Below are positions 47,220-50,961 of a stretch of 64,000 nt of DNA, in pieces. Position 1 is the stretch's first letter. Each line of letters starts with the position of its first letter. The notes under the pieces were generated by a model that saw only the letters and a list, made by a program, of their open reading frames with translations, made no database searches and was not told where the DNA came from. This stretch comes from Rhodothermia bacterium (GTDB taxonomy: Bacteria > Bacteroidota > Rhodothermia > Rhodothermales > UBA2364): positions 62,001 through 126,000 of the forward strand of contig JAFLBZ010000003.1 in the NCBI GenBank assembly GCA_017303715.1, written 5' to 3'. Made by a program: the position numbers and the translations under genes.

Positions 47220-48293
47220 TTAGCCTGCCCACACAAAAGACTCGCCTTCCTTCAGCACCACAAAGGCTTCCGGTGATACGCCCTGTTGCTTAAGGGCTTC
47301 TACTAAGTCAACTAACGGATCGGATTGGCCTTCATCCGCCATTTCAAAAGTTCCATAATGCATGGGAATAGAGGTTTTAATGCCCAACTCGCGGTGCATT
47401 TGCACAGATTGTGCGGGGGAAACATGTACCGGTGACATAAACCACTCTGGGCGATACGCCCCAATGGGCAATAAACCCACCTCAAATCCCTCCGGAAATC
47501 GCTCCTTTATTTGATGGACAAATGGCCCATATCCGGTATCGCCCGCAAAATAAAGTTGCTTGCCTTGCACCTTTAGCACAAAGCCCGCCCAAAGCGTTTT
47601 GTTACGATCGGAAAGCCCTCTCCCAGAAAAATGCTGCGCCGGAACACAAGTCAGTTGCACCGCCTCCGCCAAATTGAGCGCATCCCACCAATCCAATTCG
47701 CGAATATCCAGGAGGTTTTGCGCGGTAAGAAAAGCTTTGTTGCCCAGCGTTGTCACAATTTTGCACCCAAACCGATTTTGCAGTTGGCGTAGGGTTTGCG
47801 GATCGCAATGGTCGTAGTGGTTATGGGTAAGCAGAACCACATCAATCGGTGGCAAATCTTCAAAACGGATACCGGGTGGCCGGACGCGCTCCGGTCCCAA
47901 CCAAGTAAACGGGCTTACCCGACGCCCATACACGGGATCGGTAAGGATGTTTAGGCCGTTCCACTGTAGCAACAAAGTTGCATGGTTAATGAACGTGATC
48001 CGCAAACCTGTATCTATTCGATTGGGTGGCTTTTCGCCATAGGGCTGTTCGGCAAAAGGGGGCCAGTACCCTACATTTTTCCGGTTTATACGCCACCTAA
48101 CCACATCCCAAAACCCTTTTTGTGGCACATCGCCTATGTTATGGAACTGCGTACCATCAAAATGTTCACTTGGGGGGCCAGTATATCCCGGCGCTGAAAA
48201 CGAATGGTCTGCCAACCAAGTTCCTATACCACTCAATGCCAGTAGCCCTCCAACACCTTTTGCGGCCTTTCGTAAAAAGATTCTACGGTTCAT
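47220..48293 (-). CDS. MBL-fold metallohydrolase, NAPE-PLD-like, exported
   Basis: A 357-residue zinc hydrolase related to N-acyl-phosphatidylethanolamine phospholipase D and UlaG-type lactonases. The metal motif THNHYDH is at 156-162, later histidines are visible in PAQHFSGRG (ligand after the D-x-x-x turn) and FAGDTGYG, and MHYGTFE near the C terminus. A signal-like N terminus (NRRIFLRKAAKGVGGLLALSG) has a twin arginine but not a strict Tat consensus. It likely acts on a lipid or lactone at the membrane or in the periplasm. Sits divergently next to the BlaI regulator (182 bases between); that regulator might also control it. Confidence 0.8.
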   Translation of the reverse strand: MNRRIFLRKAAKGVGGLLALSGIGTWLADHSFSAPGYTGPPSEHFDGTQFHNIGDVPQKGFWDVVRWRINRKNVGYWPPFAEQPYGEKPPNRIDTGLRITFINHATLLLQWNGLNILTDPVYGRRVSPFTWLGPERVRPPGIRFEDLPPIDVVLLTHNHYDHCDPQTLRQLQNRFGCKIVTTLGNKAFLTAQNLLDIRELDWWDALNLAEAVQLTCVPAQHFSGRGLSDRNKTLWAGFVLKVQGKQLYFAGDTGYGPFVHQIKERFPEGFEVGLLPIGAYRPEWFMSPVHVSPAQSVQMHRELGIKTSIPMHYGTFEMADEGQSDPLVDLVEALKQQGVSPEAFVVLKEGESFVWAG

Positions 48294-48435
48294 CTTGTTT
48301 TTTGTCGTTAAACATCCATTTTAGACACATACCTTTTGGGACTTGAAAGGTTGCAGCAAGGGTTTTATTCACTTTGGCTTATACGTCCTTTATTTGGGGC
48401 ACGTCATTTACTTTAGTTGTACTATTGCATTCCTG

Positions 48436-48469
48436 CTACGTTTGTAGTACATTAAAACTACAAACGTAG
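48436..48469. promoter_or_regulatory. BlaI-type operator: 12-bp perfect inverted repeat
   Basis: CTACGTTTGTAG (48436-48447) and its exact complement CTACAAACGTAG (48458-48469) lie just before the BlaI start at 48476. Each arm is itself a CTAC...GTAG dyad, similar to the TACA/TGTA dyads bound by BlaI/MecI dimers. Position over the start region implies autorepression. Confidence 0.75.
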
Positions 48470-48475
48470 TACATT

Positions 48476-48868
48476 ATGAAACGACGCATTTTACATCCAG
48501 TAGGAGAAGCCGAATTCGAGGTTCTCCAAGCGGTTTGGCAAATGGGCGAAGCCACCGTAAGCCAAGTACACGAGCGTATTCTCACACACCGCGAAGTGGC
48601 CTATACCACGATAATGACGTTGATGAAGCGCTTAACAGACAAAGGCTATTTGTCTTATCAGAATCGTGGGAATACCTATCATTACCAAGCCCAAGTGACC
48701 TACGAAGCGTTTAGAGCATCAATGGCTTCGGAAATGGTGGAAAAGGTTTTTGACGGCTCGCCAATGGCCTTGGTACAAACACTTTTTAAACAAGAATCTT
48801 TTTCGGAAGAAGAACGTGCCGAAATCGAATCACTTCTCAACCAGATCCGCACCCACACAAACCCTTAA
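48476..48868 (+). CDS. BlaI/MecI/CopY family transcriptional repressor
   Basis: A 130-residue winged-helix repressor: EAEFEVLQAVWQMGEATVSQVHERI, the recognition helix region VAYTTIMTLMKRLTDKGYLS and a C-terminal dimerisation helix (ASEMVEKVFDGSPMALVQTLF). In known systems it is inactivated by proteolysis when a membrane M56 sensor (BlaR1/MecR1) detects its signal; such a sensor gene follows 11 bases later. Binds the inverted repeat just upstream. No beta-lactamase gene is adjacent; the MBL-fold enzyme upstream is not of the class B beta-lactamase type, so the signal need not be an antibiotic. Confidence 0.88.
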   Translation: MKRRILHPVGEAEFEVLQAVWQMGEATVSQVHERILTHREVAYTTIMTLMKRLTDKGYLSYQNRGNTYHYQAQVTYEAFRASMASEMVEKVFDGSPMALVQTLFKQESFSEEERAEIESLLNQIRTHTNP

Positions 48869-48879
48869 TTTAGAGCATC

Positions 48880-49779
48880 ATGACCGAATACTTGGGAATA
48901 ACATTACTCTATAAGCTATGGTTTCCGATGGTTGTCTGGACTATCCTTGCCAGTACAATAGTACTACTTTCGCGACGCACGATTACCCTACATCCTGCCA
49001 TTAGATACCAAGTCCTTTGGTTTGTAATTGGTTTATTGCCCACTGGTTTGGTAGCCATTTCTATTTTTCCCTCACCCATATTATACCAGAACAACCTTGT
49101 CTTGATTCCTCCGGACAGGGAATTTGAAAAACGGATCATACATTCCGCCACGAGCATCCCCTTCAATCCCAACCAAGAAAACTATTTAGAGGTTGCACCA
49201 ATACCAATTCATCAACAAAGCAAAACGGCTGATTGGTGGCATGTTTTGAATGGGGTTAGTATAGGTTTTGCTGGTCTTGCCTGCCTCTGGGCTTTCCTCC
49301 GAATAGGCCGCTTGATTCACGAGCATCTCGGATTGCTTCGTTTTAGACAAAGCCTTTCCGAAGTTTCTATCGCGTGGCAAAAGGCTGCCCTCCAGAGCAT
49401 AAATTTGCCTTATGAAGTCCAAATCACCCATTCAGAGAACCTTCACTCGCCCATCACCTTTGGTTGGCCGAATCCCTACATTGTTCTGCCTACGCCTTTG
49501 TTAGAAGACCAAGACGGCGCCAGAATTGCCATCTTGCACGAACTAAGTCATATACGTCATCACGATTTTGCCCAACAATATTTTTTACGTTTTTTAGATG
49601 CCATATTTGCCATCAATCCCATGATGCGCTACCTCATCCTACAACTCGAAATCGAACGCGAGATTTTGCGAGACCAAGAAGTCGTCCATCAATCGGAGAT
49701 TCCAGTTCATGTTTATGCAAAGACGCTCTATAAACTTGCAACTTCCTATCAAGGAAAAACCTTTTTTACAAATGCTTAG
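48880..49779 (+). CDS. M56 family metallopeptidase sensor, N-terminal part (BlaR1-like)
   Basis: Membrane zinc protease, 299 residues up to an in-frame TAG. Three membrane helices are visible (about 8-30, 45-64 and 123-143), then a cytoplasmic protease domain with HELSH at 220-224 and the downstream EIEREILRDQEVV helix holding the third ligand. M56 proteins normally continue into a fourth helix and an extracytoplasmic sensor domain. Here the TAG at 49777-49779 interrupts, and the same frame resumes in the next gene. Unless read through or reinitiated, the protease loses its sensor. Together with the BlaI gene it forms a proteolytic signalling pair. Confidence 0.8.
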   Translation: MTEYLGITLLYKLWFPMVVWTILASTIVLLSRRTITLHPAIRYQVLWFVIGLLPTGLVAISIFPSPILYQNNLVLIPPDREFEKRIIHSATSIPFNPNQENYLEVAPIPIHQQSKTADWWHVLNGVSIGFAGLACLWAFLRIGRLIHEHLGLLRFRQSLSEVSIAWQKAALQSINLPYEVQITHSENLHSPITFGWPNPYIVLPTPLLEDQDGARIAILHELSHIRHHDFAQQYFLRFLDAIFAINPMMRYLILQLEIEREILRDQEVVHQSEIPVHVYAKTLYKLATSYQGKTFFTNA

Positions 49780-49791
49780 CCCAACAAACAG

Positions 49792-50961
49792 ATGCAATAC
49801 CCTTCTCTTGCCATTTATGCGGTTGGCTCGAAAACAAAACTAAAAGCCCGCCTTACAAACCTTGCTAAAGGAGGCATTCTAAAGCCTTCCACATCTTGGA
49901 AAGTCACCTTTTTACTCATAGTCCTTAGTATTACTGTTCTATTTTTCGGGGTCGGATATTTCGGAGATGCGCCCAATACGCCACCCACTTTACAAGAAGC
50001 AAAAGATTTTATCTCGCAAAAAAATCCAAATGCTGCTACATCCGATGACCCGTATGCTTCCACGATGGTTCTCACCAACCTGACCTGTTGGGCCGGTGAA
50101 AAAAGGGTTTGCACACACCAAACCACGTTCAACATTGAACATATTGGTGTGATCTACCTGCAAAATATGGGCTTGATAACCTTTTCTTTGAAACCCTTTT
50201 CGGATGCAAAACCGATTGGAAAAGTGGAAGGAAAGGAAATAACACTTAGCCTACCAACCCAGAAAATGCGTTTGATCTCCATGTTTGATGTACTTATAAA
50301 ATCAGCGAGCAAGACTCACGTTCTTTATGCCAAGCAAGATTTACAGTACGATTATCGCAAATTAATAGGTACTGCACCCGATTACCAGAATGTTAGTACG
50401 TTACAGATGGCAACTTCCTTCGGGGGGAAACAATATAAAACCATATTTGGCATTACAAAAACGAGTACCTATGAAGCCCTTTATCCAAAACGTCCGAAAC
50501 CACCCCTTGCAATACACTATACTTCCATCCAAGTAGGAGACAAGGTTTTTAACGCAAACCCAGACCAACCCCAAAGGCAAATGTGGCTATCAAAAGGGAA
50601 CCAGACCCATAAAGTAAAGGACATCGTCACCTTAAATGGCTTAGCATCCCTTGGCCTCTTTCAATTTTCCCTCCTTCCTTTTAAAAACGCAACCAAAACG
50701 GCTTGGGTAAATGGAAATACCTTACAAGTAGAGACGGAAGTTGGTTTACTCAAAATTATCTCCTCGGAGAACATTCTCTTGACCGAAACAGGGAATTTGT
50801 GGTTCCTCTTTACCCCGTCCAACCCCAGTAAAAAACAGGAATTTCAACGCGAAATTGCACAGTGTCTCAAAGATTTAGAAAGCACTCCTGACTTTTCCGA
50901 GTTGGTTTGCAAAGAAGGAGGCTTCAAGAACCCCATCTATTTTTCTCGGAAAGCCTCTTAA
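49792..50961 (+). CDS. M56 sensor, C-terminal part (fourth membrane helix and extracytoplasmic domain)
   Basis: A 389-residue frame beginning ATG 49792, in phase with the preceding gene and only 12 bases after its stop. Its first residues (AIYAVGSKTKLKARLTNLAK) are the positively charged segment that normally precedes the last membrane helix in M56 sensors, and the helix follows at about 38-58 (VTFLLIVLSITVLFFGVGYF). The remaining 330 residues are a beta-rich domain of two similar halves (IGVIYLQNMGLITFSLKPF and LGLFQFSLLPF), probably extracytoplasmic and ligand-sensing. As a separate protein it has no protease. Joined, the two would make a sensor of about 690 residues. Overlaps the convergent dehydrogenase gene by four bases. 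Confidence 0.7.
   Translation: MQYPSLAIYAVGSKTKLKARLTNLAKGGILKPSTSWKVTFLLIVLSITVLFFGVGYFGDAPNTPPTLQEAKDFISQKNPNAATSDDPYASTMVLTNLTCWAGEKRVCTHQTTFNIEHIGVIYLQNMGLITFSLKPFSDAKPIGKVEGKEITLSLPTQKMRLISMFDVLIKSASKTHVLYAKQDLQYDYRKLIGTAPDYQNVSTLQMATSFGGKQYKTIFGITKTSTYEALYPKRPKPPLAIHYTSIQVGDKVFNANPDQPQRQMWLSKGNQTHKVKDIVTLNGLASLGLFQFSLLPFKNATKTAWVNGNTLQVETEVGLLKIISSENILLTETGNLWFLFTPSNPSKKQEFQREIAQCLKDLESTPDFSELVCKEGGFKNPIYFSRKAS

What the first reader, a model, noticed from the sequence alone, without database searches (positions are those of the whole stretch)
48880..50961. BlaR1-like M56 sensor cut by one in-frame TAG
The protease half (HELSH at 220-224, three membrane helices) and the fourth helix plus extracytoplasmic domain are in the same reading frame, separated only by the TAG at 49777-49779 and 12 further bases to an ATG. 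The conserved pre-helix segment SKTKLKARL falls directly after the break. Possibilities are a natural split sensor, programmed readthrough or reinitiation, a recent nonsense mutation, or a sequencing error.
Basis: partly seen in the sequence, partly recalled or inferred. Interest (0 to 1): 0.6.

Follow-up and report, generated by a model that had tools for sequence, protein, structure and literature searches.

The report
BlaR1-type sensor split into two genes
A membrane receptor-protease that other bacteria make as one protein is, in this uncultured bacterial genus, encoded by two adjacent genes, cut in the same loop where the best-studied relative (BlaR1) normally cuts itself; the cut is real, old and conserved, not a sequencing error.

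Summary
ORF1 (48880-49779) is an M56 (BlaR1-type) membrane protease; ORF2 (49792-50961), in the same frame, carries the fourth membrane helix and an extracytoplasmic domain. Error, recent nonsense mutation and readthrough are disfavoured. The two other genomes of the genus carry the same split at the same locus, with about 41-48% amino-acid identity to the window. Their stops are TAA rather than TAG, and one lies 6 nt nearer the same conserved ATG. No other M56 frame listed in class-wide or phylum-wide surveys is split, apart from truncations at contig ends. By profile alignment the break falls in the autocleavage loop of S. aureus BlaR1 (271-289; scissile Ser283-Phe284). The invariant Asp (D246) is in ORF1; its salt-bridge partner (Arg294) is in ORF2, 19 residues after the new ATG. 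Both halves are under purifying selection. A BlaI-type repressor gene precedes them, behind a conserved promoter with two operator-like palindromes 22 bp apart. Best reading: one gene fission at the base of the genus made a two-chain BlaR1-type sensor, in effect born 'pre-cut'. The sensor domain is not a penicillin-binding domain; its ligand is unknown. Association of the chains and function are inferred. New variant of a known kind.

The parts
48425..48430 (+). putative -35 element TTGCAT
   Evidence: Read directly; TTGCAN then 17 bp then TANNTT in all three genomes of the genus. Inferred promoter.
48436..48447 (.). operator-like palindrome O1 CTACGTTTGTAG, in the promoter spacer
   Evidence: conserved as CTACNNNNGTAG in all three genomes.
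48448..48453 (+). putative -10 element TACATT
   Evidence: Read directly; TATTTT and TATCTT in the two relatives.
48458..48469 (.). operator-like palindrome O2 CTACAAACGTAG, 22 bp from O1, about the expected transcription start
   Evidence: 22-bp spacing in all three genomes; ACTACNNNNGTAGT occurs once in the whole genome, here.
48476..48868 (+). BlaI/MecI/CopY-type repressor, 130 aa
   Evidence: Pfam Penicillinase_R 5e-31; below the NCBIfam cut-offs for CopY, BlaI and MecI; 67-70% identical in relatives, dN/dS about 0.07.
48880..49779 (+). ORF1: M56 metalloprotease half, 299 aa (three TM helices, HELSH 220-224, E261, D265, Y279)
   Evidence: orthologues L006:1471-2373 and L007:1474-2382.
49777..49791 (+). 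TAG stop plus 12-nt spacer to the ORF2 ATG; lies in the BlaR1 autocleavage-loop equivalent
   Evidence: model residues 293-305 have pLDDT below 50.
49792..50961 (+). ORF2: 389 aa; rest of autocleavage loop, helix alpha-9 with invariant R20 (BlaR1 R294), TM4, extracytoplasmic two-repeat domain
   Evidence: no Pfam or NCBIfam family.
50044..50826 (+). two-repeat extracytoplasmic (putative sensor) domain
   Evidence: Homologous repeats in the fused paralog and in fused M56-TonB_C proteins of family f16.
47220..48293 (-). divergent metallo-beta-lactamase-fold hydrolase with a Tat-like leader; possible co-target of the operators
   Evidence: Pfam Lactamase_B_2 3e-42; divergent at the same place in all three genomes. 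Co-regulation is inferred.

Best explanation
A single ancestral gene fission in this genus (the UBA2364 lineage, Bacteroidota) split a BlaR1-type M56 receptor into two co-transcribed proteins. ORF1 is the membrane-embedded zinc protease. ORF2 is a type II membrane protein whose cytoplasmic N-terminus supplies the end of the autocleavage loop and helix alpha-9 (with the active-site Arg), followed by TM4 and a two-repeat extracytoplasmic domain. The two chains probably assemble like a BlaR1 already cut in its autocleavage loop. A signal on the ORF2 outer domain would shift TM4 and alpha-9 and let ORF1 cleave the BlaI-type repressor, freeing the operon promoter and perhaps the divergent hydrolase gene. 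ORF2 is probably translated by termination-reinitiation or coupling from ORF1. Shown: conserved split, its position, conserved active-site residues on both chains, purifying selection, operator-like sites and synteny. Inferred: assembly, proteolysis of the repressor, signal transfer, translation mode, regulon.
For: The same split is in all three genomes of the genus at the same locus, with the ATG conserved and stops TAG, TAA, TAA at -15, -15, -9 from it. Both halves are homologous across species (41-48% to the window) and constrained (dN/dS 0.31 and 0.26 between the two relatives). In 245 class genomes and 247 phylum genomes, all other listed M56 frames are long except those running off contig ends. 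Invariant L321 and R324 (ORF2 L17 and R20) align across the stop with fused relatives. Profile alignment to 8exp/8exs puts Y279 on Y261, D265 on D246 and ORF2 R20 on R294, so the break is in loop 271-289 (loop and scissile bond from PMC9834060). In the AF2 read-through model the break is a pLDDT<50 loop while ORF2 alpha-9 is confident (85-91); Foldseek's best hits are BlaR1. The split proteins form one clade, 100/100. Promoter, twin operator-like sites and repressor gene are conserved.
Against: No experiment shows that either protein is made, that they bind each other, or that ORF1 cleaves the repressor. The AF2 model was made on a read-through single chain, so packing of alpha-9 is favoured by the covalent link. 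ORF1 and ORF2 evolve faster than their neighbours, so relaxed constraint is possible. The sensor model is poor (pLDDT 51) and no fold was identified. Only three genomes of the genus are held.
Confidence: 0.72

Rival explanations
1. Programmed stop-codon readthrough: some ribosomes read through the stop to make a full-length sensor, others stop to make a free protease.
For: All three genomes keep ORF2 in the same frame as ORF1 and indels in the linker are whole codons.
Against: Stop codon differs (TAG or TAA), its position moved by two codons between the two closest species, and post-stop residues (PNKQ, AQYS, YP) are not conserved, whereas the ATG and following residues are. The read-through linker (43-45 residues Y to R, stop included) exceeds 29-33 in 39 of 40 fused relatives. 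Frame identity follows simply from descent without a frameshift.
Confidence: 0.08
2. The split sensor is degenerating: the ancestral gene broke and the pieces are slowly decaying remnants.
For: ORF1 and ORF2 evolve faster than neighbours and than the repressor; long stem branch 1.53 in the tree.
Against: Catalytic HExxH, third ligand E, D, Y and the ORF2 Arg are all retained; both frames are open over about 690 codons at near-saturated synonymous divergence from the window; dN/dS 0.26-0.31; operator-like sites conserved. The fused paralog's outer region evolves at a similar dN/dS, about 0.22.
Confidence: 0.1
3. The halves have become independent: ORF1 is a sensorless M56 protease (like the M. 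tuberculosis BlaR1 homologue) and ORF2 serves elsewhere, not as its sensor.
For: Sensorless M56 proteins are known (PMC9834060, on the M. tuberculosis homologue); ORF2 has its own start and anchor.
Against: Every fused M56 in the 20-sequence alignment carries the Leu and Arg on alpha-9 that here sit on ORF2, and ORF2 keeps them plus the loop strand; the genes stay adjacent with 6-12 nt between them.
Confidence: 0.1
4. Sequencing or assembly error at 49777-49779.
For: A single TAG in one draft genome could be an error.
Against: Two other assemblies of different species carry the same break with other stop codons.
Confidence: 0.005

Closest known systems
Staphylococcus aureus BlaR1 (MEROPS M56; PDB 8EXP-8EXT)
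   Same: M56 protease with zinc ligands and active-site Asp, Tyr and Arg conserved; three TM helices, protease, alpha-9, TM4, outer domain; paired with a BlaI-type repressor.
   Different: BlaR1 is one chain that cuts itself at Ser283-Phe284; here the chain is encoded as two genes, with the break in the same loop but about 9 residues before the scissile position. The outer domain matches no class D/penicillin-binding family.
Fused M56 paralog of the same genus (G000:C3, 927 aa; L042, L043)
   Same: Same repeat type in the outer domain; BlaI-type gene upstream in the two relatives examined; HELVH protease.
   Different: One continuous frame; long C-terminal extension; different palindromes upstream.
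Fused M56-TonB_C proteins of family f16 (class-level relatives; L068-L074)
   Same: M56, TM4, then one copy of the same outer repeat.
   Different: Fused, and followed by TonB_C, which ORF2 lacks.
M. tuberculosis BlaR1 homologue
   Same: An M56 protease without an attached sensor domain (PMC9834060).
   Different: No sensor-bearing partner gene is described for it in the passage read; here the partner is the next gene.

Membership tests
Peptidase family M56 (BlaR1/MecR1 peptidases) | Pfam PF05569 above cut-off | tested here: met
   ORF1 80 bits, cut-off 31, matched to position 270 of 296.
Peptidase family M56 (BlaR1/MecR1 peptidases) | HExxH, third-ligand Glu, active-site Asp, Tyr and alpha-9 Arg | tested here: met
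   H220, E221, H224, E261, D265, Y279 in ORF1 and R20 in ORF2, invariant in 20 aligned sequences and in register with BlaR1.
Peptidase family M56 (BlaR1/MecR1 peptidases) | Zinc binding and proteolysis | not testable with these tools
   Needs biochemistry.
BlaR1/MecR1 beta-lactam sensor-transducer | Protease and sensor in one polypeptide | tested here: not met
   Two frames in all three genomes.
BlaR1/MecR1 beta-lactam sensor-transducer | C-terminal penicillin-binding (class D-like) sensor domain | tested here: not met
   ORF2 matches no Pfam or NCBIfam model; ORF1 is far below the blaR1_generic cut-off, 57.9 against 400.
BlaR1/MecR1 beta-lactam sensor-transducer | Autocleavage with bulky hydrophobic P1' | tested here: inconclusive
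   At the aligned P1' position (Arg minus 10) fused relatives have M/L/I in 30 of 40; the split proteins have A, A, T there but V/F/F one residue on.
BlaI/MecI/CopY repressor family | Pfam PF03965 above cut-off | tested here: met
   107.8 bits, cut-off 22.6.
BlaI/MecI/CopY repressor family | Binding to operator dyads at its own promoter | not testable with these tools
   Twin CTACNNNNGTAG sites are conserved at the promoter, but binding was not tested.

The most novel reading that the evidence does not exclude
A gene fission fixed in a genus replaces the self-cleavage of a BlaR1-type receptor: the autocleavage loop is never continuous, so the receptor is born as the two-chain form that BlaR1 reaches only after autoproteolysis, and activation depends only on signal-driven movement of a separate TM4/sensor chain.
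Probability: 0.4. Interest if true: 0.65.

Novelty: new variant of a known kind. Interest (0 to 1): 0.5.

Why it matters
Whether BlaR1 self-cleavage is a trigger, a maturation step or a by-product has been debated (PMC3356374 and PMC7593790 against PMC9834060). A lineage that encodes the two pieces separately, broken in the same loop, is a natural experiment: if the pair still signals, a continuous loop is not needed and regulated self-cleavage cannot be the switch. It also gives a ready two-chain system for study of the protease-sensor interface.

Tried and rejected
Sequencing error and recent nonsense mutation: rejected by two independent species with TAA stops. TAG reassignment or suppression: the orthologues use TAA. 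Readthrough: see rivals. Other split M56 genes in class and phylum: the short frames outside the genus that I checked (G053, G175, G169) run off contig ends; the match lists of those surveys are cut, so weak matches were not all seen. Naming the sensor fold: model confidence too low and no Foldseek hit at E<=0.001. Loss of the P1' residue as proof that self-cleavage is gone: dropped, because a one-residue slip would restore a V/F and fused relatives also vary. A wider regulon: the strict operator ACTACNNNNGTAGT occurs once in the genome, against 15 for the reversed-pattern control; weaker sites were not modelled. A GTDB contig scan with the C-half found only UBA2364. Paper searches found no description of a split M56 sensor, but the library is open-access only.

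Full report
What is there. The window carries, on the + strand, a BlaI-type repressor gene (48476-48868), ORF1 (48880-49779, 299 aa) and ORF2 (49792-50961, 389 aa). ORF1 ends with TAG; 12 bases later, in the same frame, ORF2 starts with ATG. ORF1 matches Peptidase_M56, the repressor matches Penicillinase_R, and ORF2 matches nothing in Pfam or NCBIfam.

It is not an error. The genome was searched with its relatives. The two other genomes of the same genus, G001 (whose contig has the same length as that of the public MAG UBA2364) and G002, carry the same two-frame arrangement: 302 + 381 aa and 300 + 381 aa. ORF1 is 41-45% and ORF2 47-48% identical to the window proteins. Gene order on both sides is the same: divergent metallo-beta-lactamase-fold gene, repressor, ORF1, ORF2, convergent dehydrogenase, aldolase. 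The stops are TAG at -15 (window), TAA at -15 (G002) and TAA at -9 (G001) from the ATG. G001 has TAT where G002 has its TAA, and TAA where G002 has CAA. The stop has thus moved while termination before the ATG was kept.

Both halves are constrained. Between G001 and G002, dN/dS is about 0.31 for ORF1, 0.26 for ORF2 and 0.07 for the repressor. Neighbouring genes give about 0.13 (hydrolase), 0.11 (dehydrogenase) and 0.02 (aldolase); the fused paralog gives 0.14 for the protease half and 0.22 for the rest. So the split genes evolve fast, but not as pseudogenes: HELSH/HELCH, the third ligand Glu, Asp265, Tyr279 and the ORF2 Arg are retained.

The split is restricted to this genus as far as searched. 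In 245 genomes of the class, 140 have an ORF1-like match. Among the matches listed, the only frames under about 370 aa outside the genus (G053, G175, G169) run off contig ends. A Pfam-M56 search of 247 high-completeness genomes of the phylum listed no other short frame. The same genome has three other M56 genes, all fused. In a tree of 42 protease domains the three split proteins form one clade with 100/100 support. One fission on the stem of the genus is the simplest history; the deeper placement is not resolved.

Where the break is. Aligning the read-through frame with fused relatives shows L321 and R324 (L17 and R20 of ORF2) invariant, with the break inside an insertion. A profile of that alignment finds S. 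aureus BlaR1 (8exp/8exs, E about 1e-17) and sets the register: Y279 with Y261, D265 with D246, ORF2 R20 with R294. In BlaR1 the loop 271-289 between helices alpha-8 and alpha-9 is the autocleavage loop, cut between S283 and F284; Arg294 of the domain-swapped alpha-9 bridges to Asp246 of the partner chain (PMC9834060). The stop and ATG lie in the equivalent of this loop; the ATG is about 9 residues before the scissile position. From Tyr to Arg, 40 fused relatives have 29-33 residues (one has 38); counted from the sequences the split frame has 45, 43 and 43, stop included. The AF2 model of the read-through frame has pLDDT below 50 at 293-305, exactly the break, but 85-91 around alpha-9 on the ORF2 side. 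Its best PDB matches are the BlaR1 structures.

The outer domain. ORF2 residues from about 85 on hold two copies of a beta-rich repeat. The same repeat type is in the fused 927-966-aa M56 paralog of the genus and, as a single copy between TM4 and a TonB C-terminal domain, in fused M56 proteins of family f16 of the class. Hence the sensor-protease combination is older than the split, and the fused form is the likely ancestor. The domain has no known family, a poor model and no solved fold match; it is not a penicillin-binding domain by any library searched, so nothing here indicates beta-lactam sensing.

Regulation. In all three genomes a TTGCAN-17 bp-TANNTT promoter-like sequence carries CTACNNNNGTAG in its spacer and a second copy 22 bp downstream, just before the repressor ATG. 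ACTACNNNNGTAGT occurs once in the window's genome, at this place. This fits self-repression by the BlaI-type protein, possibly also of the divergent hydrolase gene; binding is not shown. The paralog operon has different palindromes, so the two circuits look separate.

How it works, and how sure. The likeliest mechanism is a two-chain BlaR1-type receptor. ORF1 lacks the active-site Arg; ORF2 keeps it together with the loop strand and Leu, which is hard to explain unless ORF2 docks onto ORF1. No Shine-Dalgarno-like sequence precedes ORF2 (only 7 of 33 long ORFs in the window have one), and the genes are 6-12 nt apart, so reinitiation or coupling is likely. Whether the fission replaces self-cleavage is open: the residue aligned with P1' is A, A, T rather than the usual M/L, but a bulky V/F lies one residue on.

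Verdict. A real, conserved gene fission in a known receptor family, at a mechanistically telling place, for which no earlier description was found in the open-access library: a new variant of a known kind.

Noticed in passing
L039:1761-4544; L042:1616-4501; L043:1127-4027: A fused 927-966-aa M56 paralog with the same outer repeat and a long C-terminal extension, preceded by a secreted-looking protein of about 428 aa (no Pfam match for the L042 copy); in L042 and L043 a BlaI-type gene lies upstream with its own palindromes (ACGATCATCGT).
   Followed up: partly
window 47220-48293 (-): Metallo-beta-lactamase-fold hydrolase (Lactamase_B_2) with a Tat-like leader, divergent from the repressor in all three genomes; possibly under the same operators.
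   Followed up: partly
L068-L074, L060, L061, L063: Class-level M56 proteins of family f16 carry TM4, one copy of an unnamed beta-rich repeat, then TonB_C; the repeat looks like an undescribed M56-associated domain.
   Followed up: partly
window 48880-50961: ORF1 and ORF2 diverge much faster (about 40-47% identity to the relatives) than flanking genes (about 75-97%).
   Followed up: partly
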